From the NCBI GenBank assembly GCA_037074705.1, contig CM073591.1, positions 90,376,032-90,440,031 of the forward strand: DNA of 64,000 nt. Direction: 5' to 3'. The position numbers were made by a program, and so were the translations under genes. The notes beneath the pieces were generated by a model. It had not been told where the DNA came from and ran no database searches. It worked only from the letters and a program-made list of their open reading frames with translations. The stretch is from Zhengitettix transpicula (Eukaryota; Arthropoda; Insecta; Orthoptera; Tetrigidae). Shown here piece by piece: positions 1 to 61,260 of this stretch (positions are counted from its first letter, which is position 1; the number at the start of each line of letters is the position of its first letter).

Positions 1-2310
1 TTAGATTCAGAAATATTACTACAATGGATTATTCTAACTTACATCTATTTTTACTTTATTTTAATATAACGAGTCAATTTTATTCTTCCCGTTTTTGATC
101 AAGAATTTCACTCGGTTGTCTAACAATTTCCTTATTTATTTACAAAATTTATCAACCTATTCTCCTGGTACGTAGATTACCAACGTAAACAGATATTCAT
201 CAACTGTCAAATTCTCCCGCAATTTGTCAGGGTCATTGTGATTTCACCTTTAAAGATATCGGTACACATCATGTTTCATTACAGGTATTACCGTTGAATC
301 TATAATCAGCTTCCGTTCTGTAAGCTTTTATGGAGATAAGAACAATTTCCTCCAGTGGTTCTTACATTTGAATAATTACGAAGTACATACGAATGCGTTC
401 CAATTGAGCTTTTACCGTGTTAACCTTTGACAGGTCTTACATCGCGTTGGCAAGGTTTATGCATCTACCTTCACTAAGTTGGTGTTTAGAAGTTTTACGT
501 CACCCATTTACATGTACGTTTAAACTGTGCTTTATTTTACAAATCCTTAAGCTATTAACTTCATTCAACAATTCACTAGCAAAATATTCATATACGCAGT
601 TTCTATTCTGATCCTTTTATCTAGCGTAGTGAAATGAAGAAATAGATAGTTTTTCTCAAAGAGAATAAAAACAATATACGATGTGTATAAACCACTTAGT
701 AAATTGCGTTTCTAGCTTCTTTTGAGACCTTTAACAATAACGGAAACCACAATAGCAATTACTCCTTTAATTACAACAACTTTGAATTACAGAACAAGAA
801 ATACAAAGGTGAAAATAAAAACAGAATAAAATACTAAAGATGTCACAAATTATTTCTTTTTCTTGAATTCAAAGCCAGTTTATTTGAATAATTTTTATAT
901 TTACGTCTGATTTCAACATAAATATATAATGGACTACGATAAAAATACACTTAATTCAGACTACAGCCTGAAGAGGCTAAAAAGATTTACAGGGACGTTG
1001 TGCTGTTAAATAAAAATTTTTATTATTGTTAAATTATTTTTTGAACTATAATATGTCTAATGGTAATTTTTCATATTTTATCATTTTAGTTAAGTCAAAT
1101 AATATTTTGGGTTTTCACAATTTTATAAACGTCCAAAATTAATACCAAAACGCAATATACAAATTATTTGTCGATATAAATCTTATACAGTGTTTTAAGT
1201 CTGTTATTTTATTGTCGTTAATTTTATATGCAGAATTACAACTACTCACATATCTAATACATTTTAATAAATAATATAAATTTACCAATCCGTGTTTGAT
1301 AATTTAAATATTTGAAGGGAAAGACTGGATAATAATGTTTTATCTATAACCGTTCTATTCTTAAACGAGTCGCCCTCTACCTTTTGTTAGATTGAAGTGA
1401 TCTCTTTTGAAACATAATTAGTCTAGTAACAAGATTGAGTCACTAGAGTGAATCGTGTACATTGCACAAATACATGTCTTGTTCCTTCTCTTCCATTTTT
1501 CGGTTCGTTTTATGCTCTTTTATATCGTAAAGTTTTGTCGGCCGATTTTTTTTAATGAACACAAAGTGTCAAACTATTCCTTCCAATACGGACACCGGAA
1601 CTTAGCACTGTAATTCATAATTTGTTTGCCCACAGACGAGTTCGTGATTTCCTTCGCCTCGTAAAATGTTATTGAGAAAATGTAACATTTTCCATTGAAA
1701 AAGTTCATTACATGCCCGTACACAGCACCATTACCTCAGAACAAACAGTAAGTAGAATCTGGGCTTTTGATACTACTATAGTGTCCCTATGCGTAGAAGT
1801 CTTCGTACGTTTTATCAAAGTAAGAATATCTCCAGGTCATCTGCTCATTTTACCTCTTCGGCTGAAGCGACTCATACACATGCAATATTATAAAACATTT
1901 ATTTTCTTGTGTTGTACAATTATGTAGGCCCATGCATTTGTAACAATTTATAAATACAATAAAAAATTTCCTACTGTTATGTTATTGTTAGTGATCAATG
2001 CTTTATGCTATATAATATATACCATTTAATAAGGGATTAATTTGATAATATAATATTGTTTAATTTAATTGGAGTTGAGTGGAACAAAACCATTTGAGGT
2101 GGTAATTAATAGTCATTCTGTGCATTAGAACCTTTATGGCTGTTATTGATTTAAAGTTTGTACTGCAAAATACGTGCTGGTGATTGTTTATAAACGACGG
2201 TACACGAAAATTGACGTAGGATACCAAAGTTTTGTCTTAGATTTCACCATTACAGAACTTGTAGAGAAAAACGCGTGGTTGAGTTTCGCTATATTGTATT
2301 ATTCTCGTCG
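1..2310. other. AT-rich stretch with no recognised gene
   Basis: This stretch is uniformly AT-rich with dense stops in all frames. The open frames present are 60 to 70 codons and have no recognisable domain. I see no repeat shared with the rest of the window and no tRNA-like promoter boxes. Confidence 0.5.
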
Positions 2311-8050: not shown

Positions 8051-8054
8051 GGAT

Positions 8055-10135: not shown

Positions 10136-10179
10136 ACTTCAATGCCTATCTTCTAATAAATAAAATTGCCTGTATGTGT

Positions 10180-13649: not shown

Positions 13650-14325
13650 TTGTAATTTGTTAATTACGATTTATAATATTTATTATTTTATGAATGACGA
13701 ATTTTTTACAATATGGGGATGTGTATTAGAATATATTTAAATCACTGAAACAAAAATTTTCCTGCATATGAAGTCAGTATATTGAACAGTTTTTTTATTC
13801 ACAGTAGATCCCCGTTAATCATACAGACGTTTAGATAATAAGTTAATTTACTATATTTAATTTGTTGTCAGTAATCTACATTCTTCACCATAATTTACGG
13901 GTTTCCAGAAAATGATCTACATGAATTCATAAAACTGGAATGAGTTTTAATTTAAACTGAAGTAGTATATAATGGTACAGCTTTGGTTCCAATTGTGAAA
14001 AAAATAAACATTTTTGTTTCCAAGAATAATTTATATTAAAATGAAAAAAATTTCGTGATTAAAAAAAATGAATAAGAAAGGTAGCCAATTCAGACGTTGT
14101 GTAGTATTTATATTACCACTTTTTTGTCTGAACAATTTATATTGTTGCATAAGTGATATTCAGATATTAAATGTTAAAAAGTAATATTTTTATTATTTAA
14201 GTTAAAAAATATTATGAATATTGTGAAATAAAATTCATAAGGTACTAGAAGAATATATTTTTCATATAAATATACAAATACACGGTCTTATAGAACAAAA
14301 TTATATTTATTAATAAAACATTAAA
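13650..14325. other. AT-rich stretch with a rearranged short repeat
   Basis: There is no coding content. At 14069-14133 two short segments occur that are also found at 29997-30058, but with one of them inverted relative to the other. Confidence 0.45.
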
Positions 14326-14329
14326 TGAA

Positions 14330-14360
14330 CGACATTTCGTTCATTTTAGGACCTCTTCAG
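14330..14360 (-). ncRNA. Hammerhead-like core motif, single end
   Basis: On the minus strand: CTGAAGAGGTCC, a short loop, then ACGAAATGTCG. The CTGANGA box and a GAAA box are present, but the base after GAAA is T rather than C, and the stem between the boxes is weak. The downstream sequence resembles the outer parts of the paired elements. I found no convincing partner end nearby. Confidence 0.4.
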
Positions 14361-14984
14361 ATTTAATAATTTTTGTGAAAAAGGCCGTATATTACTTTAT
14401 TTATATTATTGTAAATGTCATATTTTTTCATAAGTAATATTTTTATTACTGCAAGCCTACCCGTACAATCCTTGCAGTTACCTCACAATTTTTCTATTTG
14501 TTCAGAGACTGTAATTATTAAGGCAACCGAAAAGTTTATATTTACCAGTAATAATACCAATTTTTTTAAAATAAAAACAGTAGTTCTAAATGTTAATAAT
14601 ATGAAATTAATTAAATAAATGCGTTCATAATTTCTAATTCAGTTTTGGAAGTAGTAATTTTGACAGAAATTTATTATCTTTCACCAGAAACTTGAGGTCT
14701 TGGTTTGAAAATGCACCCTACACGAATATAAAAGGAACAACAACATTAATTTTGAAAATCAACCAATTATTCATGACTTTTCGTCCACACATTCACGGAA
14801 TCTCGCATTTAAACGAATCTCTTGATTTCAAAGATAAAGCATTGCCCCTGATGTTTGTTATTTCCAAAACGTTTCTATTGAGGACGACTATGAAAGGCAC
14901 CGTTAATAGGCCGAGTCCTTTAATTTCTACGGTGAAGCTGCTGCTTCTTTTGTTCTTACCTCCTGAGCCATAGGAGGCCCACGG

Positions 14985-22794: not shown

Positions 22795-23450
22795 CAGAAT
22801 AAAGGGATATCACTCCAAAAATCGGCCGTGAGTGAGTATATACAAATGGATGATTTGGAGTGACAGGATGAGTTGGATTCCCAATTAGTCCAAAATCCAG
22901 TGGCGCAAAACGAATCATTTATCCATTCGTCATTCAATTTATCGTGAATCAGAAACTCAAGTAGAATGACACCGAACCACTTTATCGTCATTGTAATAAA
23001 CGTGGTCCAAATTAGTCTAATATTTTTATCATCATTCAAAGAGTAAAAACACTTGTTTTTATTTGAAGTACTATTATATATATTTTCGCCCTTTGTTTTG
23101 GTTTCCTTATGAGGCAACAGATGTCCAGAGAATTAAATTTTTTACCCTTTTTTGACATTTTAACAGAAGAATAAATCAAGATAAACAAAAGAACAGAGTA
23201 AATACTAAACTAAATACCTGGCGTAACTATGAATTTGGTAATTTTTATGGATGTTATCCAAAAGGATGGCATATATTGGATTTGATCCATTCTGAGCGAA
23301 TATAAATGGCCATCTTTATGAACTCAGAAAGACATGTCTAAACTTTTGGAACAGATTTTTACCAAACATTTGTTTTTATCTGTTATTTGACTATTTATTT
23401 AACTAATTAGAGAATTTAATCTAAATAAGAAATATATTACTTCCAAATAG
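22795..23450. other. Stretch with no recognised gene
   Basis: AT-rich DNA. A 107-codon minus-strand frame (22794-23117) is open, but its product is dominated by N, S, I, F and W with no recognisable domain. I judge it a chance frame. Confidence 0.4.
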
Positions 23451-23454
23451 TGGC

Positions 23455-23620
23455 AGAGTTCTCGGGTTTCTAGTCAGGTGATGTCATTTATTGCACACAA
23501 CGTTTCCGTGGCTGGCACCGCCATCTTCTTCTTCACTTCACCTGAAGAAGATGACTCTGTCAGCCATGGAAACGTTGTGTGCAACAAATTAGATCACCCG
23601 ACTGGAAACCGGAGAACTCT
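23455..23620. mobile_element. Foldback (inverted-repeat) element
   Basis: Two arms of about 77 bases form an imperfect inverted repeat around a roughly 12-base centre. The left arm contains TTGCACACAACGTTTCCGTG (23491-23510) and the right arm its complement, CATGGAAACGTTGTGTGCAA; both outer ends read AGAGTTCTC. The arms differ at scattered positions, so it is not an assembly echo. One frame across the right arm reads TSPEEDDSVSHGNVVCNK, reminiscent of repeat-derived peptides common in insect gene models. I classify it as a MITE-like foldback. Confidence 0.7.
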
Positions 23621-24292
23621 TCATCCAGCGTCTACGTCCGGAAAACCTACGATATCCAATATATTTCTTATTTATTCCTGTTTCAGGATTATTAAATAAT
23701 CCTTAATTATTTTTTATACTGATTTATTTCCTCGCATCAACAGGTGAGACTATCAGCGACTCAATAAAGGATCTCATTTGGCTATTTTCGGGGCCCTGAT
23801 TTGACGAGAGTTTCTCTCACGCACAGAAACATCCATTCCCTCGCCGGGATGCAAGCGCTGGGCATGTGGCTTTCGGAATGTTGACCAAGACCCGTACTTT
23901 TAGCACCCATCCAGTACTTTTTCACTCTATAGACTACAGTACGAGCAATAAGTTCCAGAACACAGCATTATTCATTTTGCAGATATAGTTTTACATTATT
24001 TCTTTCTTCTAGGAATTGTAACATTTTTCTACATCTGGAAGTAATCTGTTATGAATATACAAGAATATATTAATGAATAGTTGGGTGATGACAACAGCAC
24101 AAGTCATACATCAATAGCATTTATAGTATTTGAAAAGTACTTTTATATGTTGAGGATGGTAGACGAGATGTCACCAAGTCATGGCTGATGACACAACTAT
24201 GTGCTTGTGTACTAACTGATTTCTGTTACTGCCCAGCTTGATTCTACTTTGATGGGTGGTATAGACTACTAAAATATACCTTATTATTATAT

Positions 24293-28580: not shown

Positions 28581-28899
28581 CTGAATTTTATTCAAACGTT
28601 TACTGAGGTCATGCCTATTTAACTTTGGATAAAATCGACAGCGTAACATATCGACCTTGATTGTACACATAAACATTTAAATATGAGGTGTATTGAAATA
28701 TACATGAACTGTCCCCGTGTGAATAAACAAAAAAGGAGTGCAGTTAGAAAATAAAACAGAAATATTTATCCAACCCAAAAATATAGAAATATACTTAAAA
28801 ACACACGAGCCTTCACCTACACAAACGGAAATAAAAAATATGAATAATGATGACCATCTGACATATATTAATATATAAATAAATAACCTGGTCATAAGT

Positions 28900-28987
28900 C
28901 AGAAAAAGTTAATAATTGACAATGCTATTAAATACAATAAACAAATATTATTCCGACGTTTCATCACTAATATGGGATTTCATCATG
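28900..28987 (-). ncRNA. Hammerhead-like end downstream of a Penelope-like remnant
   Basis: On the minus strand the core (28987 to 28953) reads CATGATGAAATCCC, a loop, then GATGAAACGTCGG. After it come TTTATTG words and then TTTCTGACTTATGACC with a TTTATTTAT tail, matching the outer flank of the 56.4-kb element (TTTTCTGACTCGAGACC, TTTATTTAA). It lies on the same strand as, and about 400 bases downstream of, the GIY-YIG remnant at 29385-29700. That is where a Penelope-like terminal repeat would be. The first box has ATGATGA instead of CTGATGA. Confidence 0.5.
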
Positions 28988-29384
28988 TGTGCATTAATTG
29001 TTAAATAAGATAGATATATAAGGTCGTAATTTTTAATTCCAGAACAAAATCTTCAACGAAGATGTATTTAAACATGTCTTAAAAAATGTTTTGTATAAAA
29101 TTATATAAAACTGGTTTCACTTACAATTTGCATACAATTCCAAGATCACCCTGTAAAACCTTCCAAACATTAATATTAAATAAATAAATTTATAAATAAA
29201 GTTAGTTTAAATTTCAAAGGCGCGGTTAGGTTTCGTAGACTGTTGCGATACAGAAATAACAGCGTGTTGCAAGGAATACGTATACATTGATTAACACAGA
29301 CAAAATTTTGGTACTAATTCAAATTAAATATGTATAAGTCTATTTCAAATTATTTCAATACTGTACCAATGTTTAATATATTTG

Positions 29385-37895: not shown

Positions 37896-37930
37896 CTGAA
37901 GAGGGTACACGTGTATGTACAGAAACGTTG
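37896..37930 (+). ncRNA. Hammerhead ribozyme-like motif
   Basis: CTGAAGA at 37896 is followed by GGGTACACGTGTATGTACA and then GAAAC with GTTG after it. GTAC pairs with GTAC around a 7-base loop, giving a plausible stem II between the two invariant boxes. Both boxes match the hammerhead consensus (CUGANGA and GAAA followed by C). Stems I and III and the cleavage site are not assigned. It lies some 300 bases from the second GIY-YIG remnant, on the opposite strand. Confidence 0.5.
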
Positions 37931-45098: not shown

Positions 45099-45133
<35 letters not shown>

Positions 45134-47428: not shown

Positions 47429-47947
47429 AGGTACACCCGCGAGAGAAAAGCCTTCGCAGGCTTCCTTCTTGTAATCCATTTAGTTGCCACTCACCTGTTA
47501 TGGCAAAGGAAATAGACTGAAAGGGGGAATCGGGGGGGGGGTGTAGATAGGCTATGTAAAGGGTAATCCACATAGTGGCAACTCCCCTCTTATAGCATAG
47601 GAAAGGGATTTGAAAGGGGGGATGCGGTAGGGTGTAGGAAGGTAGCCAAGGGTTACTAGGGCCCCCGGGCTATATTTTAAGGATAGGATCCTTAAAATAT
47701 AGCCCGGGGGCCCTAGTAACCCTTGGCTACCTTCCTACACCCTACCGCATCCACCCTTTCAAATCCCTTTCTTATGCTATAAGAGGGGAGTTGCCATCAT
47801 GTGGATTACCCTATACATAGCCTATCTACAGCCCCCCCCCCACCCATTCCCCCTTTCAGTCTATTTCTTTTGCCATAACAGGTGAGTGGCAACTAAATGG
47901 ATTACAAGAAGGAAGCCTGCGAAGGCTTTTCTCTCGCGGGTGTACCT
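47429..47947. repeat. Long near-perfect palindrome built from repeat A
   Basis: The left arm (47429-47684) and right arm (47688-47947) are reverse complements with roughly ten differences in about 256 bases, separated by just three bases (AGG). The inner 150 bases of each arm are the 5' part of repeat A. The outer 110 bases carry a diverged second version of the same 5' part (TTGCCACTCACCTGTTATGG against TTGCCACTATGTGGATTACC-type sequence) plus CCGCGAGAGAAAAGCC. Poly-G and poly-C runs lie in the arms. The scattered differences argue against a simple assembly mirror. Confidence 0.9.
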
Positions 47948-48499: not shown

Positions 48500-48720
48500 A
48501 TCTATATTAATAACATTTTTGACTCTGTTCTTAAGTAATTTCTGTGGACTCATCATTTTTATATTTTTTTATTATTCGTAACCTCTTCGTCTTTATACTA
48601 TGATGTTTTGTGTGCCTTAAGGTACTGCTGATGAGGTCCACGAATTGCGGTAGAAAAGTTACGTGCAATAAATTTTGTGCGTATTTTTTTCCCTTATTAT
48701 CTGAGTTCTTGGACATTTCA
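48500..48720. mobile_element. Inverted pair of hammerhead-like ends, degenerate
   Basis: Minus strand from 48555: TGATGAGTCCACAGAAATTAC. Plus strand from 48628: CTGATGAGGTCC, a spacer, then GGTAGAAAAGTTACGTGC. The two motifs point outward from a core of about 70 bases. The right copy keeps CTGATGA exactly and a GAAA box, but the base after GAAA is A. The left copy has lost the loop between the boxes. Both continue into AT-rich flanks. Confidence 0.45.
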
Positions 48721-48938
48721 ATGTTAATTTTTAGTTAATGCTTAAGTATTGACGCTATAGCTGTAAATGAGCATGCAATAATTTTCTCGTTTAAATGTAT
48801 CAGTTATCAATCAGCAGGCATTTTTAACACACTCATTTTCATTAACGAAGTTCTAAATTATCGTACCAGGTCTTGTTTCACATCCAAATCCACTTTACAG
48901 AGTATATTAATTGTTGCTGTACGTAGGTTGTGCATACA

Positions 48939-49998
48939 TCGGGGGAGTCACACTGGCGGCCCGCGAAATGAACGCAGCCCCCAAGCTAATTTTTTGTAGC
49001 CCAAGATGCTATGAAATAAACCAAAAATAAATAACTGTTACGAAGAAAATAGCGCCTAGGAGAGATCGAGGCACGTCATCTGAGCAATCATAATTTTGTA
49101 TTGCAAGGCAAAGATCGTTTAATAACGAATATGCACGATGCAATTACATGTTTTGTACAAAAACTGACTTTGTCCAAAAATCATCTGCAAAGAAACATTT
49201 TGACATATTGTACTACGTGTGAGGAGTTAAACTCACAAAATAAAAATTACTAAATTTCATAAAATTGTTTTTAAACTGAACAAATTAAAAATTACTTCGA
49301 TAAACGTTACAGTGTAGGCAAAGACTGACAAGAATTTTTTTCCTTTTCATGGACATTTTTCATTTACAATTACAAATGCTTCCACATCGATACAACTGGA
49401 ATTATTTGATTTCCAGATTGACTAGGTTTTAAAGGACAAATATCGGGAAGCAGGAATTCCCAAAATATATTCTTATTTACGTGAAAAATATCCGTATATT
49501 AAAACGTTTGAATTCAATGATGTAAAGAGACTGCTTTCACAAGCCACAGGCCATATAAGGCCATGGCTAAGTTGAATTGAAAAGTTTACAAGAAACTTTT
49601 ATGCTATTTAAGGGAGTACGTACTTTAGTGCGCCACTATTCTCGTCTATGAAATTAAATAAAACGGCATACACATCAAGATTAACTGATAAACAGCTGTC
49701 TTCTTTAATGAAGATTATCGTTATTGAGTCTTTGAATCCGTATATTGATAGAAGGAAAGCGATTGCATGTTTCGTGTAAGATCGAATAATTTTTGTTTTA
49801 CAAAAACATTAAATTAAATAAATGCTTAAATAAAATTAATTAATAGTGTTTTAATTATCCTTTCCATATTCCTAAATCCTTACTTCAGAATAATATAAAT
49901 TTAACAAAATTTGTAAGTGCGATGTGGCTTGCGTAAATATTGTCTGTTACACCAAATGGCCCGTGTTTTAATTCAGTTCGACACCCGCGGTCTAAATT
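48939..49998 (+). mobile_element. hAT DNA transposon relic (ZBED type)
   Basis: The left end reads GGGGGAGTCACACTGGCGGC followed by CCGCG. The right end, reversed, reads GGGTGTCGAACTGAATTAAA then ACACGGGCC. Both fit the familiar GGGGTGTCxAACT...CGGGCC termini of ZBED-type hAT elements. A transposase C-terminal pseudogene lies between them in the plus orientation. At about 1.06 kb the copy is far shorter than an intact element, so the 5' part of the gene is deleted. An 8-bp target-site duplication was not clear. Confidence 0.6.
49339..49780 (+). pseudogene. hAT transposase C-terminal remnant (ZBED/GTF2IRD2-like)
   Basis: A single frame with few stops reads FPFHGHFSFTITNASTSIQL, ELFDFQID, stop, VLKDKYREAGIPKIYSYLRE, KYPYIKTFEFN, and later FTRNFYAI, stop, GSTYFSAPLFSSMKLNKTAY, TSRLTDKQLSSLMKI, ending in a stop near 49780. 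The LQLELxDxQxD segment, the FGSTYxCExxFSxMKxxKxxxRSRLTDxxL motif and the short tail are the hAT dimerisation region of the ZBED5/GTF2IRD2-type transposases. The zinc-finger and catalytic parts are missing. A 20-residue stretch around KRLLSQATGHIRPWLS looks like local divergence or an insertion. Confidence 0.75.
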
Positions 49999-50149
49999 CT
50001 TCGAACGGTTTTATTATATGTAAATGTGCTCCTAAGGCTCTGTAATGCCTCTGTAAATCAGCTTCCAAGCACAAGCACTTCAGAAGGCTCAAATTGATTT
50101 TTTTCTGTTTATATAAACATATTAAGGCCCTTGAAAAATCTGATCAAAA

Positions 50150-50860
50150 ATCAAGGTTCTCCATACAGTTAGAGTAAGTTGGATTTCATAAACCAGTGTG
50201 GTTTCAGTTATTTCTGGCAAGAGTACTACACTGACGAGAAAATAATATTGTCTTGCAGGAATTCCTCTGACAGAGAGATGATACTGAGGAACTACGGCCG
50301 ACAGTCTAAGGATGCACGCAGGGGAATTACCCGAAAGACCAGGTATGAAGTCATGTGGCACTATTCGGTAATGAATAATGCGTACAAAGAAATCTCTCCT
50401 GGCGGAGACCCAACTCGGACGCCGTTAAAAAACAAACTTGTTTAAAAGTGGAGCCTTTGAAAGCACCTGGCGGGCACATTTACATGCTGGGGGGCGGGGG
50501 ACGGAACTGATTACTCCCCCCGCCCCAACCTCCCCTAAAAAAAAAAAAAGAAGTGCGCTGCGACTTTTTCCTTCATTACGGCGCCGGAGCCAAGATGGCC
50601 GCATAATTGTCAAACGCAATGAGCTGCTTTGGTTAATTCTGAAACACATTTGCTGAGACGTTGGATTAAGAGAGAACTGAATGCATTAAGAAGAGAGGTA
50701 AGAAAAAAGTGGAGGGAGAAAACTTTACTTTGGAGGCGACGTCTCTATCTTTACTTTTTTTTCCCTCCCCAGAATTCTTTGAAAGCTTCGTGTCGATGCT
50801 GTAAAAAAAGTGTTCCCGTCTGCAAAGCGTGGTACAAATGACGGATACTCCCTCGATCAT
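50150..50860. other. GC-richer, apparently unique island
   Basis: This patch has a long run of balanced composition, an A13 tract at 50538-50550, and open frames on both strands (88 codons plus-strand at 50179, starting with TTG; 79 codons minus-strand at 50361). The 88-codon product contains SSDREMILRNYGRQSKDARR and looks protein-like but is unrecognised. AGCCAAGATGGCCGCATAAT near 50589 is a YY1-like word. Regulatory DNA or an exon are both possible. Confidence 0.35.
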
Positions 50861-50984
50861 TTTTCGGGAGATCGAGGAGATGTAGACATCTGATCTACAG
50901 ATAAGGTTTGAAGATTTATAACGTCTTTATATAACTGATAGATGTAGATTCTGTTTCAAATAAATTTTGTGTTCTCAATTGGTC

Positions 50985-51225
50985 AAAAATCATTAATCAA
51001 GCAAAACCAAAAATCATTACGATACGACGTTTCGCCCACAATTCTGAATTTTTATCATGCTATAATTTAGTCAAAATATAATTTTAATGCCGGCGCCCTA
51101 AGATAATTGTAAATTTAACTTCCAATTTTAACATATATATGCATACATTAAAAACTGATGAAGTCCAAAAAATGTGGACGAAACGATTAATTGAATTTTT
51201 TTTGCTTGATTAGTACAATTCTTCT
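50985..51225. mobile_element. Inverted-repeat element with hammerhead-like ends
   Basis: The left end (minus strand, core 51059-51025) reads CATGATAAAAATTC, a loop, then GTGGGCGAAACGTCG. The right end (plus strand, core 51155-51186) reads CTGATGAAGTCC, a loop, then GTGGACGAAACG. Outside each core the flanks are mirror images: CATTAATCAAGCAAAAC on the left and TTTTTTGCTTGATTAGTAC on the right. The core motifs point outward around roughly 95 bases of unrelated DNA. There is no coding capacity. Confidence 0.65.
51155..51186 (+). ncRNA. Hammerhead ribozyme-like motif
   Basis: This is one of the two best cores in the window: CTGATGA, A, GTCC, a 9-base loop, GGAC, GAAAC. GTCC pairs perfectly with GGAC as stem II. 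One extra A after CTGATGA separates it from the textbook form, which may weaken or abolish activity. The flanks give no certain stems I and III. Confidence 0.5.
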
Positions 51226-51229
51226 GAGA

Positions 51230-52100
51230 AATTGAATTTTTTCTGTTTATTAATAAAAAAACGTTATTTTGAATTCGGAATTTTCTCAGAATTCAAAATA
51301 TGCAAAAGTATATAATAAATGACAGCTAAATAATAACCATTACTATTTTTCTTAATTCAGGAAGATTTTAATACAAAATTCACTTCATTGTTTAAATTGA
51401 CAATTAAATAAATACAATTTGAAAAACACCGAGTTTTTACTCTAATTTGGGACATCAGCAGGTGAATATAATAATTGTTTTAAAAGAAAATACCCTGGAA
51501 TCAACTTTTGTGATAAAAGCTTCTTTCAGGATGATGAATATTTGAGTCGGATATAACTGCCAGTCCTTGCATTTTGAGTTTTATTCATAATTATTTTCTG
51601 TCATATTAAATATGTTTTTGAACCTACAAATTGAAGATCTTGACGCTTTATTCAATCATATTAATATAAAAATTCAACACTATGTATAATATTTTTATTA
51701 CAAAAATTAATTATTAAGTTTTCGTCTTTTTTTAACTATTTTCATGTTCACTTCATGAAATAAAATTTAGGTACAAAACGTTGTATTCTTTCAAATGTCA
51801 TTGATTTCAATGACAATCTATGCACCGAGGTGAATATTTCGCATTTAACTTGTTCTGTCTTATTGGTCATTATATTTATTTACTTTTTTATTATAAGTCA
51901 TTTAAAATATTAGTTTTTAAACTACTTGCGATTGTGTAAAAATAATAATTAAAACTATATATAGAATTTTAAAAATGTTATTTGTAGTACACATAACCGT
52001 TTTCAAAAACAACGTCCTCCTAACGATCACAATCGTGTTGTTTACGGATATGCAATTCATATAATCGTGCAGATCAATTTAAAATATTTAATAGCACGCC
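51230..52100. other. AT-rich stretch with no recognised gene
   Basis: No protein, RNA gene or shared repeat is recognised here; it lies between the inverted-repeat element and the LINE 3' end. Confidence 0.45.
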
Positions 52101-52104
52101 ACGC

Positions 52105-52455
52105 TTTTTACGATGATAATAATCTAGAATTTAACTTATGACTTACTTTCTTTTTCATGTTCGACGGGAATCGATGTAAGATTTTCTACTGGAAACTCCG
52201 CCGAATGAAAATTAGTAATTAGTAATTAAAGAAATGATAAGTATTTTAATTCATTTTCGTCTTATTCATATCTTTATCGTTGTTTTAAATCAATATTTAA
52301 CGTAGTTTTAAATCATATACTTTTTTTGTAAAGTGCAATGTTAGTTTTTTAAACTTTGTATGTGTAATAATTATTATTTTCATTGTAAACTTATATTATG
52401 GCGTATCCTATTTTCTCGATCGAGGACTAATGGAATGAATAATAAATCTAAATCT
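52105..52455 (+). mobile_element. LINE 3' end (intact at the insertion point)
   Basis: The sequence follows the 17.4-kb LINE in order: GATAATAATCTAGAATTT, GTTCGACGGGA, GGAAACTCCGCCGAATG, then without interruption GTAAAGTGCAATG, AAACTTTGTATGTG, TATTATGGCGTATCC and CTCGATCGAGGACTAATGGA, finishing with an AATAATAAATCTAAATCTAG tail. Only the 3' UTR is present, a severe 5' truncation normal for LINEs. It shows what the site at 16.1-17.2 kb looked like before the TA-flanked insertion. Confidence 0.65.
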
Positions 52456-52669
52456 AGTGATGTATGATTCTAAACTTCTGTGGAGAAATTTTCTATTTGA
52501 AGTATAAACGCCTAATTTATGCCACTATCTTAACGTCTTGTTTCGGCAGCTCTTCTTTAAAATGTTTAGACGAAATGAGCCGTTTATTAGTTTGAGGATT
52601 ACTGTTTTAATTTGCTCATAAATGATAGAAAACGAAGATATAAGAGAGCATGACGCTTATACTGGCGGT

Positions 52670-53000
52670 TCCAATGATTAGTTGATCGAGTGCATTGATA
52701 TATGTGCAGAGCGGGATTCTTGTCACGCAGTGGGTCATTGTTGTGAGTGCTCAGTATGCGTGCCCCTTACCGCGAGCCTGGTGGCGACGGAGGTATATTT
52801 GTGAGAGAAGACGACCTAGGGTTTATCGCCGGCAGGTTGGTCAGCCCGGACATCCATCACCATCCATCTTGCCGTCTGTCAGTCAGCACAGTGGGCCGGC
52901 AAACAACACACATTCAGCTCCGATACCGTGAGAGTACAGTCGGTTCGATGGCCAAGTGAAACTCGGTACGACGTAACGACATGGCCATAAAGCAATGTAC
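52670..53000. other. GC-richer, apparently unique island
   Basis: A balanced patch with three overlapping open frames of 60 to 80 codons on both strands, none recognisable. It contains GCCGGCAGGTTGGTCAGCCC and other CpG-containing words. It may be regulatory DNA or a first exon. Confidence 0.3.
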
Positions 53001-53679
53001 AGACGCAAAAACATGTAAACATAGAAAAAGCTTGAATTTGCAGCTACGTCTGTATTATTTCGTGTTGAAATTAACGGGTGTTCCATTGTCTATAGTCGAT
53101 TATATTAGGAGCGAAGGCCTCGATAGCTGAATCATTGGAATTATCTGAATCTTTTACGTTTGTTTCATTAAGGATTTTTCTGTCTTGTGCTTAGCTATGA
53201 TTCTTAATCCTTTTCCCAGAAGACGATCAGAATTTATAAAAATTGGAAACGTCGGAGTATCTCTTCTGCTCTTTCAAAATGTCTCTACCAGCAAACAAAA
53301 GAAATAAACCCAACATATGCATCTGTATTGTATTAAACGACGTGGTAACACGTTAAACAAATTGGCTGGCAATGTTTGCTCTTCTGACTCTTCTGATTTT
53401 CAAAAATCAACAATATTCTGGAGAAGAAATTCTACTTCTTTCGTTATATGTCCAACTACGAAGACAGAAATACCTTATTGTTTTTCGAGAACACTGAATT
53501 AATTATCGCAGGTACGGACGTCAGTTACGGTTCCTGCGCAACTAGGACCTAGTTAATAACTTTCCTTTGTAAAATCAAGAAAATGGCGAGTAAGAAAATC
53601 CAACACCCATGCCTGCCATCTAATGATACTATCCAATGTGTAATAATTACTGTTTGAAGGATAATTCAATCTCTACATT

Positions 53680-54172
53680 TTTCTGGTAGTCTTCCCAGAG
53701 AGCTCTGGCGGATGCCTTCACATCTTTCTGGTTTTTTGAAATAAAGTTCCCGCACGCCGAGGCACCTGGGCCATTTTAAGAGGTGTATGTTCCGGGGTCG
53801 CAGACTTTGGGTATACGGTAAGAGTTGTCCGCTATTACTATTGGAATAGTCGGCCAGCTGCCTCCTAAACCGGTCAAGGTATGGCGAGGGAAAAGACGCG
53901 ACCCCACAGCTAACCCCTCTCCCGCCATCGGAAGGGTGTGGGACAAGTACCAAATGCCCGACCTACCTGTTTCAGGTTTATCTAGGGTTTTCCCTGCATC
54001 AGTTTTAGGCGAATTGGAGGGTAGTATTCTTAAACCATAACCCGGGAGCCCTAGCTAACCCTTGGCTACCGTTCTCTACCCTTCCGCATCCCCCCTTTCA
54101 AAACCCCTTCCTATGCTATTAAAGGGGAGTTGCCACCATGTGGATTACCCCCATGTAGCCTGTTACCCTAAA
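53680..54172 (-). repeat. Repeat family A, near full-length minus-strand copy
   Basis: Read on the minus strand from 54172: TTTTTTTTAGGGTAACAGGC, TACATGGGGGTAATCCACAT, then all landmarks of the family through AAGGCATCCGCCAGAGCTCT at the 3' end (near 53690). It is the best complete copy with the TTTAATAG 5' subtype. The 95-codon minus-strand frame and its 71-codon opposite are shadows of the repeat. Confidence 0.85.
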
Positions 54173-54529
54173 AAAAAGATTAATGATTACACACTAAATT
54201 TATTTAAGACATTATACACCCATTGTGTAAATAATTTTTTACGTCATTATAAATAATTATATTATTACAATATATTTATTATATCCGTTTAAAATGAATA
54301 TATAATTATAATAATAAAACATTATACTCCCATTTTAATTAGACGCTCGTACACTCATTCTCGCCTTAATTAGGGACTCGCCATGGAGCATGTGGTGTGA
54401 TCGTGTACCTCATATATAATTTTTTAAGGATAAAATTTTATATTTTGACGTTAACGACAGATACAATGTACGCACAATATGCAACAAGAATTTGCTTTCG
54501 TAAGAAAAACAGAACGCCGAGATGTGGAT

Positions 54530-54845
54530 TCTTCGTAGGAACACTTTTTTTGTCTTGACCACGCAGCGGGTGGTCAGAGGAGCTGAAAAGGGTCAACGGA
54601 GACGTGAGTTTGCATAGAGGCAGTAGAGCTCGTGGAAAAGCGAACTGGACGGTTGGAGATTGAGGATCCAGTTTGGCAACGTGCGTCTGGATACAGACAA
54701 AATATGGTGTTATGCAAGTCTACAAGTTAATACATTTATGAGTTTGAGAGTAATACGTACAATTTTGTTTGTGAATGTAATATGTACCGAACATTGGTAT
54801 TTAAAATTAACATTATATAGTAGTATGAAGAAGTTGAGCGTAGAC
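54530..54845. other. Balanced-composition stretch upstream of an open frame
   Basis: The 54540-54680 part is GC-richer (CCACGCAGCGGGTGGTCAG, CTGGACGGTTGGAGATTGAG). It leads into the open frame described next. No promoter or splice signals can be assigned with confidence. Confidence 0.25.
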
Positions 54846-55139
54846 GACCTACCAGTTCATATATGGACGCGAGACTAAGCGCCATCGGCGATTACATGCA
54901 AGAAAAGGACGTCAGGAAGACATACGAGATCGCAATACACAAGAGATAGATATTACAACACCGTGCCAGCTCATAAATACATCGTCTTTGTTGGAGAAAA
55001 TTGCCGCCGACGGAGAAACTTTCGTAAGTCTTGTACGTACCGTAGAAAATAAATTGGTCTGTAATAGTAAAGGTTCATCATACAAAGTTATCGGCAATAT
55101 TATTCTAAGGATTGCTGAACTTGACTTTAACTCTTCTTA
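54846..55139 (+). CDS. Unassigned coding-like frame without a start codon
   Basis: A frame free of stops for about 97 codons ends with TAA at 55137-55139 but contains no methionine at all, so it could only be an exon or a fragment. The product has TKRHRRLHARKGRQEDIRDR, then a stretch ITTPCQLINTSSLLEKIAAD, GETFVSLVRTVENKL and KVIGNIILRIAELDFNSS. It looks like a real protein (mixed charge, amphipathic LLEKIAADGETFVSLVRTV helix) more than most frames here. I do not recognise a family. An acceptor site near 54846 is possible but unproven. A transposon-derived fragment is equally possible. Confidence 0.3.
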
Positions 55140-55144
55140 AAATT

Positions 55145-56315
55145 AAAAATTGACAGTTTATAAATTAATTTATTGATGTATGGCCAATTAAGTCGAAAAA
55201 TTAATAAATATTACATTCAATATTTAATCATTCACATTCACACTAAAAAGTTAAATAAAGATATATCTCATGTAGGTATCTCAACTTTCGGGATTTTGAC
55301 GTTAATATTGTGTGGTTTAATATTTTTCATGGGCAAAAATTCACTGTGATGGAAAAACTTGTAAACTGTTTAGTGTAGATTTCCTTTACACTAATTTTTC
55401 ATCGTAAATGTAAAATATTAAAATAAATTTATTACTTAACTTATTTAATAAATTTCTGACTAATTTTTCGTAAATAATTGTATTAATTTTAATGCTTTTG
55501 TATTGTGAAAATAAATTTTGCGGTGATAAAAAATATGTTTACGAAATCATATGAATTAACCGTAAATCATGATCTTTGTAATACTTGAATAAATAATATA
55601 ATTATACAAAAAATTAATTTATTTTGAGTAACATATTTAGAGTATACGGTCTTAAAAATTTATGTGCATATAAATGAAAATAAAGTTTATTCAGTAACTA
55701 TAAATATGCTTAAGTGTCAAAAAATTCTACATTGAATTGTCAATTCCATTGAAATAGTAATAAATTCGAAGAAAACTAATTCAATTTAATATTACAGATG
55801 AATATGCAAGAAAACAGTTTCGAAATCTCCTGTGTATGACCACATCCAATTTGGCGTGAATAATTTTTATATGAAATATGAAAGCCTACATTTTTTTTAA
55901 TATTCGATTAAAATTAAAGACAGCTTCGATGTATTTACCGTTTCAGAAAACAAATCCATTCTGCCATGTTTGCATAAAGCAATTAAAATTAGGTATTGGA
56001 ACGATCGCCATTTAGTCTGGAGATGTCGGAAGGCAGTTTGTTATTGTTAAATACCTTTTCACTCTTCTACCTAAAAACGACGGATATTTTATCGAAATCG
56101 GTCCGATAAGTTTCTCGTGGAAACGGAACGAACTGAGAAATACAGGGAGACATGAATTTAGATGTAATTCGTTTCGGATCGTGAAATGTGCAGATATACT
56201 AAACTTATTGGATGCAAAGGACTGTACAGACCAAATTGTTCTTTTCTTTACTAGCTTTATAGCGACTGAGTGCGCCATAAAATTAAAATAATGATAAAAA
56301 ATATCTGACATTTGT
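55145..56315. other. AT-rich stretch with no recognised gene
   Basis: AT-rich throughout. The 99-codon minus-strand frame at 56012-56311 has no recognisable domain and I treat it as chance. Confidence 0.45.
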
Positions 56316-56318
56316 AAT

Positions 56319-56615
56319 ATTATAAACGGCCTTGAGTCAGAAAAATGTTTATTAACAAAAAAAAATTAAATACACCGACATTTCGACTTTCTTTTAGGAC
56401 GTATGGAGGTTTAGTAATTTCATATTTAAATCATACAAAACATTTATTGTTTAATATTAATTGCAATAGGAAAGACATCTAAACCTGGGCTCCAAATTTT
56501 TTGTACGATTTATATATGAATTTTCTAAACCTGAAAAGTTCCTAAAACAAGGGCGAAACGTCGTAAATTTAATAAACTATTTTCTGACTCGAGACCGTTC
56601 ATTTATTTAATCATA
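56319..56615. mobile_element. Inverted-repeat element with hammerhead-like ends
   Basis: The left end reads AACGGCCTTGAGTCAGAAAA, then TGTTTATTAAC, AAATTAAATACACC, GACATTTCG. The right end reversed reads AACGGTCTCGAGTCAGAAAA, then TAGTTTATTAA, ATTTACGACGTTTCG. So about 60 bases of each end are clear inverted repeats, and just inside each lies a hammerhead-like core pointing outward: right CTGAAAAGTTCC ... GGGCGAAACGTCG, left (minus strand) CGTCCTAAAAG ... GTCGAAATGTCG. About 120 bases of AT-rich DNA lie between. This is the clearest copy for the outer flank consensus. Confidence 0.7.
56531..56563 (+). ncRNA. Hammerhead-like core, degenerate first box
   Basis: CTGAAAA stands where CTGANGA is expected, followed by GTTCC, a loop, GGGC and a perfect GAAAC with GTCG. 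Stem II could form with a G-T pair (TTCC against GGGC is imperfect). It has the family layout but is probably inactive. Confidence 0.4.
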
Positions 56616-56619
56616 AAAT

Positions 56620-57165
56620 TAAGCGTCTCAGAGTCGACTGCTTTCCCAATGAAGTGAAAAAATTACAAATGTATTTATTAAACATATAGTATAATTATAA
56701 TAATGAGCTATAATGTACTATTTAATATAAAATCACTTAAAGAGTGTCAAAATTTTCAGTTGTGAGTAAATATTAAACATAAAACAAATCTTTCATTAGT
56801 ACGTATGACAAATGGCAGATGCTTTGCGTTGACTCATCAGCTATTATATGCTGGATTTAATTCAAACAATATTCAAATAAATTGATACAGGAGCAATGAG
56901 TTATATCAATTTTCGTCGTATAATATCAATATCATTGTAGTGACAATACCATCTGGAACCGTGCTTAATTTTTCCATCTCTATAGGAGAGACGAGTAACC
57001 AACCAGTGATAATGATTTATTTTTAAAAAAAATTGGAATTTATTAATATTTTTTCATTGGTTAAGAAATGTGTATATTCGGATATAAAAACTTAAGTGCT
57101 TTTAATTTAACCATAATTCAAATAAACGCGTATTATTTTTCCAATAAGGAACTGGATTTTTTTAG
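56620..57165. other. AT-rich stretch with no recognised gene
   Basis: No coding or repeat signal recognised between the inverted-repeat element and the GC-richer island that follows. Confidence 0.45.
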
Positions 57166-57169
57166 CGGG

Positions 57170-57600
57170 ATTTCTGTTAATTGAATGCCCCAGCTCTGGA
57201 CGAGTGACACATTTTGAAAATATTTTGGACCGTTGGTAATTTGAGAGCCACGCGCTGTTTAAGGCAGACTGCGCGTTCCATCATTGCCAGGTGCCGCTGC
57301 AAACACCACAACCATCGCCTTCTAAAGCACACAATGTGAACTGCTCCCGCCATAAATCCACCAGCACCGCAAAAGTGCCGCATGCGATCTTGTACGAATA
57401 ATGGGACCTGTTTAAAATGCGAACAAGTCAAGATAAGGCGGCTGTCTGACAGTTTTTATTACCCCGCGTTTAGCGACCGCGGCGGGGGCAAAATTGGTTC
57501 GTTGGAAATATTTCTCGGGGAAGTTAAACTTGAAAGAAGGGTTCGTTTGAAAGATGGCGCACTGTCACGCACTTAAGAGCTTTCTTCGCTATTTAAGTAG
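57170..57600. other. GC-richer, apparently unique island
   Basis: About 430 bases of balanced, non-repetitive DNA with an 84-codon minus-strand frame and a partly overlapping 64-codon plus-strand frame, both unrecognised. CGCGTTTAGCGACCGCGGCG near 57465 is CpG-dense. It directly precedes the 3' end of the unassigned minus-strand frame at 57609-57881. Confidence 0.3.
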
Positions 57601-57608
57601 CTTTCTGC

Positions 57609-57881
57609 TTAGGTTTCCGACTCATGTTCCTTGCGGGGATCGCCGTCGAATTTATGTTGTACTAGTAGAATCCTATCGTCCCGATCACTAATCTGACTTT
57701 TATGAGCGTCATAACCAGGCTGAGCGCCTACAGTACCTCTAATAATACCATGTTTTCTAATAATAATTTCACATAATGTCTCAATACTCTTCTGATAGTT
57801 CCGTCCAACAGAAGCAACATGGAAACCGGTCCCCCTGTTAGACTCAACTTCCTCAACTGAGGCATTTTCATTATATTTCAT
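57609..57881 (-). CDS. Unassigned protein-like 90-codon frame
   Basis: Of all ATG-started frames in the window this has the most protein-like composition. It begins MKYNENASVEEVESNRGTGF, then HVASVGRNYQKSIETLCEII, and ends in HKFDGDPRKEHESET before TAA. It is hydrophilic, with no signal peptide or membrane segment. Upstream (58000 and beyond on the plus coordinate) is AT-rich with no visible continuation, so it is either a small gene, a terminal exon (an AG occurs just before TTGAGGAAGTTGAG) or a fragment of an element. I recognise no family. Confidence 0.35.
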   Translation of the reverse strand: MKYNENASVEEVESNRGTGFHVASVGRNYQKSIETLCEIIIRKHGIIRGTVGAQPGYDAHKSQISDRDDRILLVQHKFDGDPRKEHESET

Positions 57882-57884
57882 TTA

Positions 57885-58390
57885 AAAAAATCTGAATTTA
57901 TACAAACACTATTGTACTAGTCTGTCATTTTTAATAATGGAAATATGAAGCTCATTTATGTAAATAAATAATTAATATATAATAAATTATATTTATTAAT
58001 TTTAGTAGTATTCAGAGGTTGAAGTCAATTATTTTTTTAAAATAAATTTTTTTGAATGTTAAATTAATTTTTAAAGGAAGTCTGAAAATTTAATAAAAAC
58101 AAGCTGAAGTTACAGAAGAAATTGGGACGCACCAAAAATTTCGTGCGAATATTCAAATATTTAATTAGTAAAATTGTTATTAAATTATATAAATATTATG
58201 TATATATTAATTATTATCATTATTTACACTTTGAAATCTACATATGACTAACATCCCTTTTTATCCAAAAAAAATTTTCGTTATTCAGAAAAGTGCTAGC
58301 AATCGTATTATGCAAAATAAAATATTGAACTCAACCTTAAGGGGAAAAAACCTACGGTGTACTTTCAGCTTGGTGATCACCTGGTGTCTT
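57885..58390. other. AT-rich stretch with no recognised gene
   Basis: Dense stops in all frames and no shared repeat. Confidence 0.45.
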
Positions 58391-58444
58391 TAGGTGAGTC
58401 AAGGTCGAAGTCCTTTTACAGTGAACATAATAGAAGTCCATACA

Positions 58445-58830
58445 TTAATTCTTGACCCTTTACAGCTTCTTTAGAGGTTCCAATTTGTCTACTGAACTCA
58501 ATTTATTTAATTGAATGGATGTCAATTCTGTACGGCTGCCCTCGATGTGACTATCATCTGTGTATAAAAACTTATCCACACTATCATTTCGTAGGTGATC
58601 ATGTTTGGATCCGACAGTGAACATGTACAAAATTGATATTTACATATTCACCATCAGAGTCTGAAAATTTTGTCAGTCTCTTCACCACACCTTTGTTAGC
58701 GAATTTTCCCCAAGAACCGTAACCTTCAATTTTCAGGTTTTGTTTGTGCTTGAATACCAAAATAATCCATCTGGCATTAGTTGTGAGATTAAAGAGTGGT
58801 CCAGTTTTCTAACCCTCTATGTATTCAACA
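58445..58830 (-). pseudogene. Decayed protein-coding remnant, family not recognised
   Basis: On the minus strand one frame reads GPLFNLTTNARWIILVFKHK, then QNLKIEGYGSWGKFANKGVV, KRLTKFSDSDGEYVNINF. After a frameshift near 58620 it continues as SKHDHLRNDSVDKFLYTDDS, HIEGSRTELTSIQLNKLSSV, DKLEPLKKL and a stop near 58462. Two long adjoining frames with protein-like composition, linked by one frameshift, are good evidence of an old coding sequence. I cannot name the family. It may be a host processed pseudogene, since no intron breaks the homology, or a transposon protein. Confidence 0.5.
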
Positions 58831-59064
58831 GTTTAGTACCACATTTCTCTAGGTTTCCTCCGATCTCTCCATCAGCACAACATATAATTTCTTTTATGTA
58901 TCCTTAATAATATATTACACTAAAGTTCAATAAAGATTACGTCGACCTAAGAAAACTAGATGTCACGCGTTATTATAGTTTTAGACTGTTCAAAAAGTCA
59001 AATATACTCGCTTATAAATATTTTCCCTTCAACAACAGCACGATTTAGTCTACCGTCGTATTTT

Positions 59065-59425
59065 TTTTAGGTTTACATAGGCTATATATATAGGATAATC
59101 CACATAGTGGCAACCCCCCTCTTATAGCATAGGAAAGAGATTTAAAAGATGGGGTGCGAAAGGGTAGAGGAGGTTGCCAATATTTAACTAGAGCCCCCGG
59201 GCTATGGTTTAAGGATCTTACCCAGCAATTCGCCTAAAAGTGATGCAGGGAAAACCCTAGAAAAACCTGCATCAGGTAGGTCGGGTATTTGGTACTTGTC
59301 CCACGCCCTTCCGATGGCGGGAGAGGGTTTTGATGTGGGGTCGTATCTTTCCCCTCGCTATTCCTTGACCAGTTTAGGAGGCAGCTGGCCGACTATTCCA
59401 ATGGGAATAGCTTAATACAGGTCTT
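59065..59425 (+). repeat. Repeat family A, 3'-truncated copy
   Basis: It starts with TTTTTTTTAGGTTTACATAG and runs through AACCCCCCTCTTATAGCATA, GGGCTATGGTTTAAGGATCT, AAAAGTGATGCAGGGAAAAC and TCCGATGGCGGGAGAGGG to CCGACTATTCCAATGGGAAT, then stops abruptly. A short TAATACAGGTCTTAATACAG duplication follows at the break. CTCTTATAG 5' subtype. Confidence 0.85.
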
Positions 59426-59429
59426 AATA

Positions 59430-59870
59430 CAGGTCGCCAGTTACAAGAACAGAGTTCTATTATAACACCAAATAGTATAACTTGGACTACATGACTTGTA
59501 CTTTTCGTTTATATGTCTCGGAAAAAATAATCTTAAAATCTTTCGTTAGATTAGTTGATGTTTACGATCGCCGCTGATATTAAATCTGCTATTATATAAC
59601 AACGATGTTGTTGGCAGTTTCTTCGTCGATACGTTCAACGCATCACTGAATTAACTCTTAACTTATGTGAACATTATTCTAAAGAGGCAAAGTATTATAG
59701 TCGTTTTTGATAACAAATATAAACTTTCCTTCTCCAAACGGGACGATTGATACATTCTTCTACAATCGGAATATTGTTAGTCGCACGTGGTCAGTGTAGC
59801 GATTCTCACGGCCTAAATTTAGGACTTCAATGAAGAATAGGTATTATATGTAAATTGATCATGGGTGTAA
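59430..59870. other. Stretch with no recognised gene
   Basis: AT-rich DNA between a repeat A copy and a SINE; nothing recognised. Confidence 0.45.
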
Positions 59871-59875
59871 TGATT

Positions 59876-60125
59876 TCAATTCAAGAACAGAATAATTGCT
59901 TTCAGACAAAGCTCAGTAACAGAGGCTATGAAATTGTATTAAAGGATCAGGTTGAAAAAATCTAGGCCGTGAATAATGTGTTTTAGTAAATTGTACGTTA
60001 GGCCGTCGCAGGGAGTATACAATAGATGGAGTCGACTCGGATAACTCAGATTGAAAAGTTGATTTGATTCAGTATCCGCCTTTCTGGCGGAGATTTGTTT
60101 GAAAGCAATTCTTACGATACTGAAA
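59876..60125 (+). mobile_element. SINE copy, diverged
   Basis: The head TCAAGAACAGAATAATTGCT, TTCAGACAAAGCTCAGTAAC matches the 4.75-kb copy, and the preceding AATGAAGAATAGGTATTATA matches the partial copy at 11.6 kb. CAGGTTGAAAAAATCTAGGC and TTCTGGCGGAGATTTG match internal words at 11.5 and 13.6 kb. The tRNA-like B box is not recognisable, so this copy is probably promoter-dead. Confidence 0.5.
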
Positions 60126-60129
60126 TTTT

Positions 60130-60540
60130 ATATTATTTAGAGGTAGAACGGACTGTAAATTAAGAATACACGTTGTTTATAGAGCTTTGTATTCCGTCAC
60201 CGTAAAACGTAGAAGAAAGTGTGATGCATAAAATATATTACCAAATTTATAAATAAGTATATATTCGATGTCAAAACGTAAAATTTTTACTTGCAAACGT
60301 TTTCAATTTCTCGGGCCCTAGTAAGTCGATGTAGTGTATCAATTCAAGTACAACTTCATAGTAATTATCATTAAGAAACTAATATAACAAAAATCGTAAC
60401 ATTGTTCTTCTTGTATAATTCATTAAAATGTGACAATGTCGTATTTCTTTAATTTATCTTCAAATTTTCAAGTTTATTTATTGATAATTCAGAATTTTTT
60501 ACTTCTGTTGAAAATATTGTTTGAGTGCATGAAAACATTT
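60130..60540. other. AT-rich stretch with no recognised gene
   Basis: No coding signal or shared repeat recognised. Confidence 0.45.
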
Positions 60541-60544
60541 ATTT

Positions 60545-60870
60545 ACATAAATGGTCATTTTGAGAGGACTTGAAAACAAAAGCAGCGACTTGCAGACGTC
60601 AGCTGGCGCATCCATCACGCGGCCTCCAAAAAGGAGCTATCCCTGTTTTCCAGTGCGAGGTTTTTGCTCCCACAAGCATTCCTACGCTTTAAATACAATA
60701 CGTCGGCTCCACACATTAATTAATCCATCTCTCGGAAGTTTACGAGCGCTCAACCCGTGTTAGGGTTTTTATGTTACACGATGAGCGGACGGAGGTGGAG
60801 GGGCAAGAGAGACCTGCTTATAATGTGGAGGTATTATCCATACACACTGACAGGTCTTTCGTTCTGCGAC
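60545..60870. other. GC-richer, apparently unique island
   Basis: A balanced patch with a 70-codon plus-strand frame of no known family. The words ACACATTAATTAATCCATCT and CACGCGGCCTCCAAAAAGGA in unique DNA again give an enhancer-like impression. Confidence 0.3.
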
Positions 60871-61099
60871 TGCAAAAATGTAATAATTCATATACACTAG
60901 CTCCAAGAAACTATCAGATAAGCTGAATTGGTGAACAATTAACTATGATAGAGAGAAGTTAGCCCGCTCACTATTTACCAGGATTGAAACCCCAGAATTA
61001 TAATTACAATTAGCAATGATTTAAAAATACAATAACATTTAAATTTTTTCACGTATTTTAATAATAGAATAATTTGAGTACATTTATGAAACATTATAC

Positions 61100-61260
61100 A
61101 CGTAAAGCTATTATAATTTCTTAAAAGCTAAATTAATACATTACAAAACATAACACGTTTCCATTTTCTGAAATGTTTTATAATAACTAAAGAGGTTTTC
61201 GAGACTCGGGCGAAACGTCGTGTTTTGTTTTGTATTATCTAACTAATTTGTCGATGTTAA
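61100..61260. mobile_element. Small inverted-repeat element with a hammerhead-like end
   Basis: The right end (plus strand, 61187-61220) reads CTAAAGAGGTTTTC, then GACTCGGGCGAAACGTCG, followed by TGTTTTGTTTTGTATTATCT. The left end, reversed, reads CAGAAAATGGAAACGTGTTA followed by TGTTTTGTAATGTATTAA. So both ends share GAAACG, TGTTTTGT and GTATTA words in opposite orientation with almost no core between them. The first box on the right is CTAAAGA instead of CTGANGA. Confidence 0.5.

What the first reader, a model, noticed from the sequence alone, without database searches (positions are those of the whole stretch)
48500..61260. A family of small inverted-repeat elements whose ends carry hammerhead ribozyme-like cores
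At 51.0, 56.4 and 61.2 kb, and more weakly at 48.6 kb, two copies of a CTGANGA-stem-GAAAC-type motif point outward from a small core, with mirror-image flanks. Seen in sequence: shared box order, the recurring GAAACGTCG word, and conserved outer flanks at 56.4 kb. Known: Penelope-like retroelements carry hammerhead motifs in their terminal repeats. Inferred: these are non-autonomous derivatives of such elements, kept as outward-facing ribozyme pairs. I know of no named family of this shape.
Basis: partly seen in the sequence, partly recalled or inferred. Interest (0 to 1): 0.8.

Follow-up and report, generated by a model that had tools for sequence, protein, structure and literature searches.

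The report
Mirror-image Penelope ends with ribozyme relics
This stretch of an unidentified, eukaryote-like genome holds several short, decayed repeats whose two mirror-image halves keep traces resembling a self-cutting RNA (hammerhead ribozyme), most simply read as leftover ends of Penelope-type jumping genes pasted head to head; the ingredients are known, the small gene-less form is less familiar.

Summary
The observation largely holds and is broader than reported. GAAACGTCG occurs 5 times against 0.24 expected. Mirror-image flanks around outward-facing cores are clear at 56.5 kb, supported at 51.1, weak at 61.2, absent at 48.6 kb. Further loci were missed at 14.3, 23.5, 28.9 and 51.6 kb. The best core, 51155-51185, scores like weaker phage hammerheads (25.2 bits), but the pattern that gathered those phage cores fitted it from the start, and a lone core of this quality is not rare by chance (23 of 200 simulations). 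Rfam's silence is uninformative: it also called no hammerhead in 16 phage loci with such cores. No arm is catalytically intact; stem II shows no covariation.

Two elements carry flanking direct repeats of 11 and 17 bp, three copies share an extension on one arm, and arms mostly match their own mate best. This fits descriptions of Penelope-like inserts with head-to-head inverted pLTRs (PMC3846280). Best reading: gene-less inverted pLTR pairs with relic minimal hammerheads. No reverse transcriptase was seen in 20 ORFs scanned and the genome could not be searched; Penelope descent is inferred.

The parts
56287..56611 (.). best-preserved element: two inverted arms of 130 and 114 nt around a 48-nt middle
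   Evidence: IR score 116 vs null max 63 of 100 shuffles; RNA fold z -9.6; ends set by flanking repeats
56276..56286 (+). left copy of 11-bp direct repeat (putative target-site duplication)
   Evidence: perfect 11/11; 4 of 2000 random placements reach it
56612..56622 (+). right copy of the 11-bp direct repeat
56531..56562 (+). right core CTGAAAA..GAAACGTC (one box I change; stem II 4 bp with two wobbles)
   Evidence: 7.7 bits, E 4
56377..56408 (-). left core CTCCATA..GAAATGTC (box I lost)
14196..14431 (.). related element with one core; outer flanks of both arms present, right core missing
   Evidence: blastn 75% over 76 nt, E 2e-6 to 56345-56420
14179..14195 (+). left copy of 17-bp direct repeat (putative target-site duplication)
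   Evidence: 17/17; 1 of 2000 random placements reach it
14432..14448 (+). right copy of the 17-bp direct repeat
14331..14360 (-). core CTGAAGA..GAAATGTC
   Evidence: 11.6 bits, E 0.46
28826..29001 (-). single arm (core 28955-28986, ATGATGA..GAAACGTC) with outer flank and extension like the 56.5 left arm; no partner arm recognised
51353..51862 (.). inverted repeat with degenerate cores at 51430-51458 (-) and 51752-51782 (+)
   Evidence: IR score 62.5, top of one simulated window 37; left core 14.3 bits vs best of 40 simulated windows 10.8; outer arms p 0.001
50975..51235 (.). inverted repeat around cores at 51.1 kb
   Evidence: score 63 vs null max 51; anchored p 0.0007/0.005; outer 0.042; fold z -2.75
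51155..51187 (+). best core: CTGATGA-A-GTCC..GGAC-GAAACG, followed by AT instead of TC (cleavage triplet lost)
   Evidence: 25.2 bits, E 2e-4 (pattern behind that model fits this core)
51019..51051 (-). left core of 51.1: GGGCGAAACGTCGT kept, box I lost
   Evidence: 15.4 bits vs simulated max 12.2, model holding its mate but not itself
61130..61250 (.). weak inverted pair; right core 61187-61219 (+) CTAAAGA..GAAACGTC, left box II at 61157-61161 (-)
   Evidence: outer p 0.005, inner 0.06; 0.22; 8.6 bits, E 2.4
23422..23674 (.). inverted repeat, arms 23422-23531 and 23544-23674, with diverged cores reading GGAAACGTTG in both arms
   Evidence: score 119 vs null max 28; 81% over 168 nt; fold z -17.3
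48628..48660 (+). lone weak core CTGATGAGGTCC..GAAAAGTT, no inverted partner
   Evidence: the hit there (10.6 bits, E 0.8) spans only 48628-48642
37896..37929 (+). lone core-like motif CTGAAGA..GAAACGTT, no partner seen
   Evidence: 12.3 bits, E 0.3

Best explanation
These are gene-less, decayed insertions of Penelope-like retroelements, each consisting of two pseudo-LTR (pLTR) fragments in head-to-head inverted orientation, and each pLTR once carried a minimal, loop-III-less type I hammerhead (CUGANGA-R-GUCC...GGRC-GAAAC-GUC). Likely course: reverse transcription primed at an AT-rich target copies a short pLTR-containing RNA; self-priming or template switching makes the inverted second arm, so the arms of one locus are copies of each other; repair leaves a target duplication of variable length; a short extension (tail) stays on one arm. 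Shown here: recurring cores, inverted arms, flanking direct repeats of 11 and 17 bp at two loci, a one-arm extension at three, own-mate similarity. Inferred: the Penelope enzyme, self-priming, past ribozyme activity. Present copies are inert relics; their transcripts would fold into long hairpins that hide the ribozyme.
For: GAAACGTCG 5 vs 0.24 expected; box I spacing, 3 of 5 vs 1.85%. Inverted arms at 56.5, 51.1, 51.6, 23.5 kb. Family similarity beyond the core among 14.3, 28.9 and 56.5 kb (blastn E 2e-6; composition-matched p 0.001 to 0.029 for four outer-flank pairs). A profile of those arms alone finds the 51.6-kb core above all 40 simulated windows. Direct repeats of 17 and 11 bp at element ends, 1 and 4 of 2000 random placements. 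One-arm extension shared by 56 left, 14 right, 28 left (p 0.002, 0.006, 0.002). Own mate is best match for 9 of 10 arms over -60..80. Phage-core model: 51155-51185 at 25.2 bits, and 6 of its 19 hits up to E 10 span candidate cores of this report. Literature: Penelope inserts with inverted pLTRs, 8-10 bp duplications, a 31-bp tail on one inverted pLTR, head-to-head as most frequent, self-priming proposed (PMC3846280, passages); PLE sequences carry hammerheads that are usually minimal (PMC6155905, passage; PMC7761336, passages).
Against: No reverse transcriptase or GIY-YIG match in the 20 ORFs scanned. No intact arm; stem II shows no covariation (54.8% paired vs 61.6% in shuffles). A lone core with stem II of 4 bp or more appears in 23 of 200 simulated windows. 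The phage cores were gathered with a pattern that 51.1 right satisfies, so its score is not an independent test. The family core profile scores 51.1 (8.8, 8.0 bits) and 61.2 kb (6.7) within the range of simulated tops (10.8, 9.4, 8.4...). Flanking repeats are inconclusive at 23.5, 28.9, 51.1, 51.6 and 61.2 kb. The one-arm split is not clean: 56 right vs 28 left ends p 0.009. Own-mate similarity is partly built in, since some loci were found as inverted repeats, and is 8, 8 and 6 of 10 for other stretches. Gene conversion could also make mates alike.
Confidence: 0.55

Rival explanations
1. A retrozyme-like or SINE-like family that is mobilised as a whole inverted-repeat unit by a Penelope or LINE enzyme, the palindrome having formed once long ago rather than at each insertion.
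For: Flanking repeats of differing length fit RNA-mediated insertion. Metazoan retrozymes carry type I hammerheads in small, self-paired RNAs and may use PLE enzymes (PMC7229834, PMC7761336, passages). 14.3 and 56.5 kb share arm-specific ends (56L-14R 0.002, 56R-14L 0.036).
Against: Retrozymes are described as direct tandem repeats; these are inverted. Arms match their own mate better than any other arm in 9 of 10 cases.
Confidence: 0.2
2. Miniature inverted-repeat or foldback DNA transposons that contain a hammerhead-like motif, moved by a transposase.
For: Size 236 and 325 bp, AT-rich, inverted arms, no Pfam-recognised ORF.
Against: Flanking repeats of 11 and 17 bp differ in length (two loci only); the outermost ends of the two arms differ (56L-56R 0.15, 14R-14L 0.13).
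Confidence: 0.12
3. Chance: AT-rich, partly palindromic DNA plus a few hammerhead-like words, at least for the hammerhead part.
For: A lone core as good as 51.1 right is seen in 23 of 200 simulations; 61.2 kb is weak; 48.6 and 37.9 kb have no partner; covariation negative; of ten inverted repeats found, only three hold cores.
Against: GAAACGTCG 0 of 200; 51.6 kb above all 40 simulated windows; blastn 56.5 vs 14.3 kb E 2e-6; fold z -9.6 and -17.3.
Confidence: 0.08

Closest known systems
Penelope-like elements with inverted pLTRs (Adineta vaga Pen2a, Pen2, Pen5, Pen6; PMC3846280, passages read)
   Same: head-to-head inverted terminal pieces, short variable target duplications (9, 10, 8 bp there; 11, 17 bp here), an extension on one inverted pLTR, one arm shorter, AT-rich targets
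   Different: those inserts hold a reverse transcriptase-endonuclease ORF or captured DNA, and some have no duplication or only direct pLTRs; here only a short middle and no recognised ORF; that paper's text has 0 occurrences of 'ribozyme'
[quoted passage not shown] known via PMC7761336 and PMC6155905 passages)
   Same: box I, stem II, GAAAC joined directly to the GUC cleavage triplet, no loop III
   Different: described in tandem copies that may act as dimers; here inverted, so one transcript holds one sense and one antisense copy, and no copy is intact
Metazoan non-LTR retrozymes (PMC7229834, PMC7761336, passages)
   Same: small non-coding units, type I hammerhead, self-paired RNA
   Different: tandem direct units with working ribozymes; these are inverted pairs with no intact ribozyme
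Phage hammerheads found here by pattern
   Same: core with one extra nucleotide between A9 and stem II (demanded by the pattern); 131 of 136 matches have stem II of 4 bp or more (three of the four pairs are demanded too)
   Different: in phage contigs; those printed close helix III and stem I by eye; no common descent claimed

Membership tests
Penelope-like element | reverse transcriptase with GIY-YIG endonuclease, or remnants of them | tested here: not met
   0 RT or GIY-YIG matches in 20 ORFs scanned, not all ORFs of the window; gene-less derivatives would lack them, so filed only as a derivative
Penelope-like element | minimal type I hammerhead in pLTR-like repeats | tested here: inconclusive
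   recurring core and spacing but no intact copy, no covariation
Penelope-like element | inverted (head-to-head) pLTR arrangement with optional one-sided tail | tested here: met
   arrangement; description from PMC3846280; that the arms are pLTRs is inferred
Penelope-like element | short target duplication of variable length | tested here: met
   11 bp at 56.5 kb and 17 bp at 14.3 kb; 5 other loci inconclusive; no empty site available
Retrozyme (metazoan non-LTR) | direct tandem units with type I hammerhead | tested here: not met
   pairs are inverted; tandem repeats of the window do not overlap the cores
Hammerhead ribozyme (functional) | CUGANGA, stem II, GAAA, NUH cleavage triplet together in one copy | tested here: not met
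   each of 11 arms listed lacks a feature or has extra nucleotides on both sides of a stem II
Hammerhead ribozyme (functional) | self-cleavage of transcript | not testable with these tools
   needs in vitro transcription
MITE / foldback DNA transposon | terminal inverted repeats with fixed-length target duplication | tested here: not met
   repeats of 11 and 17 bp and differing outermost ends; only two loci informative

The most novel reading that the evidence does not exclude
The elements are DNA copies of a small rod-like RNA family: an inverted repeat makes a self-paired rod, and a hammerhead on one side of a rod automatically gives a hammerhead in the opposite polarity too, the anatomy of viroid-like RNAs processed in both polarities; Penelope-type enzymes would only paste them into the genome.
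Probability: 0.04. Interest if true: 0.85.

Novelty: new variant of a known kind. Interest (0 to 1): 0.42.

Why it matters
Minimal hammerheads are reported by the thousand as mostly dispersed motifs in animal genomes, with their role called a mystery (PMC7761336, passage). If many sit in gene-less head-to-head pLTR pairs, much of that dispersion could be a by-product of Penelope self-priming, and the own-mate signature of the arms would let the unsettled priming step of Penelope transposition be read from genomes. It also warns that an inverted pair cannot supply two sense ribozymes on one transcript, so such copies are poor candidates for dimeric self-cleavage.

Tried and rejected
Rfam at gathering and at E up to 10 on 14 kb and on two pieces of 311 and 321 nt: no hammerhead. 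Positive control: 16 of 120 phage loci carrying the core pattern, six of them printed with stem II of 4-7 bp, gave no hammerhead, only twister types in 2; a piece of one locus at E up to 10 gave none. The Rfam negative is therefore dropped as evidence.

The phage-trained model was first meant as an independent test. It is not fully one: the gathering pattern was written with the 51.1-kb core in view and that core satisfies it. The 12 held-out pattern cores in 10 loci score 30.4-40.5 bits, other hits there 12.6-32.9; 51.1 right scores 25.2. The model used 29 of the 80 listed phage loci (30 rows); L002 and L008 were skipped.

No animal collection is on hand.

Stem II covariation: negative. Whole-locus alignments with permissive scoring were mostly not above null and discarded. 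The first arm alignment misplaced the 28.9-kb arm; redone by anchoring on the core. Of ten inverted repeats with score 50 or more, three hold cores (23.5, 51.6, 56.5 kb); those looked at among the rest (6.1, 24.4, 25.2, 37 kb) hold none that I recognise. 53.2 kb (GAAACGTCG without box I) is undecided. Leave-one-locus-out profiles ranked the left-out locus first for 56.5, 14.3 and 51.1 kb, second for 61.2 (after 48.6), third for 51.6, fourth for 28.9.

Direct repeats were noticed before the boundary ranges tested were set, so those p-values are partly post hoc. The p-values (24 comparisons) are not corrected for multiple testing. Two ORFs of 110 aa or more (of 12) were not given to Pfam.


Full report
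What the window is. 64 kb, 23-39% G+C per 2 kb, no tRNA found, no Pfam match above cut-off in the 20 ORFs scanned, many diverged repeats. It reads as non-coding DNA of a eukaryote; the organism was not identified, and the genome search did not complete.

Noticed in passing
window 47429-47947: Long near-perfect palindrome (arms of 153 nt at 96% and 113 nt at 97%) built from a dispersed repeat unit with relatives at about 20.5, 22.5, 30.6, 48.2, 53.9 and 59.2 kb; no hammerhead core seen.
   Followed up: no
window 42785-45140 and 7160-10800: Diverged satellite-like array (spacings 228-634 nt) containing TTTAACATGTTT..AAAATTTCCACCCC, with an inverted relative at 7-10.8 kb.
   Followed up: no
window 24294-24494 and 5944-6287: Two further short inverted repeats without a recognised hammerhead core; 24.4 kb has AAACGACGAAAGCTTCTGA in both arms.
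   Followed up: partly
L001-L120: IMG/VR phage contigs carry complete-looking hammerheads, some several per contig in the same direction (for example L037, L038), yet the Rfam search called none in the 16 loci tested.
   Followed up: partly
L122:11436-11570: Contig with a perfect 20-nt inverted repeat GGTTACGACGTTTCGACTTT..AAAGTCGAAACGTCGTAACC, not hammerhead-like by eye.
   Followed up: no
window 53218-53267: GAAACGTCG without box I or inverted partner; appears among weak profile hits in several leave-one-out runs.
   Followed up: partly
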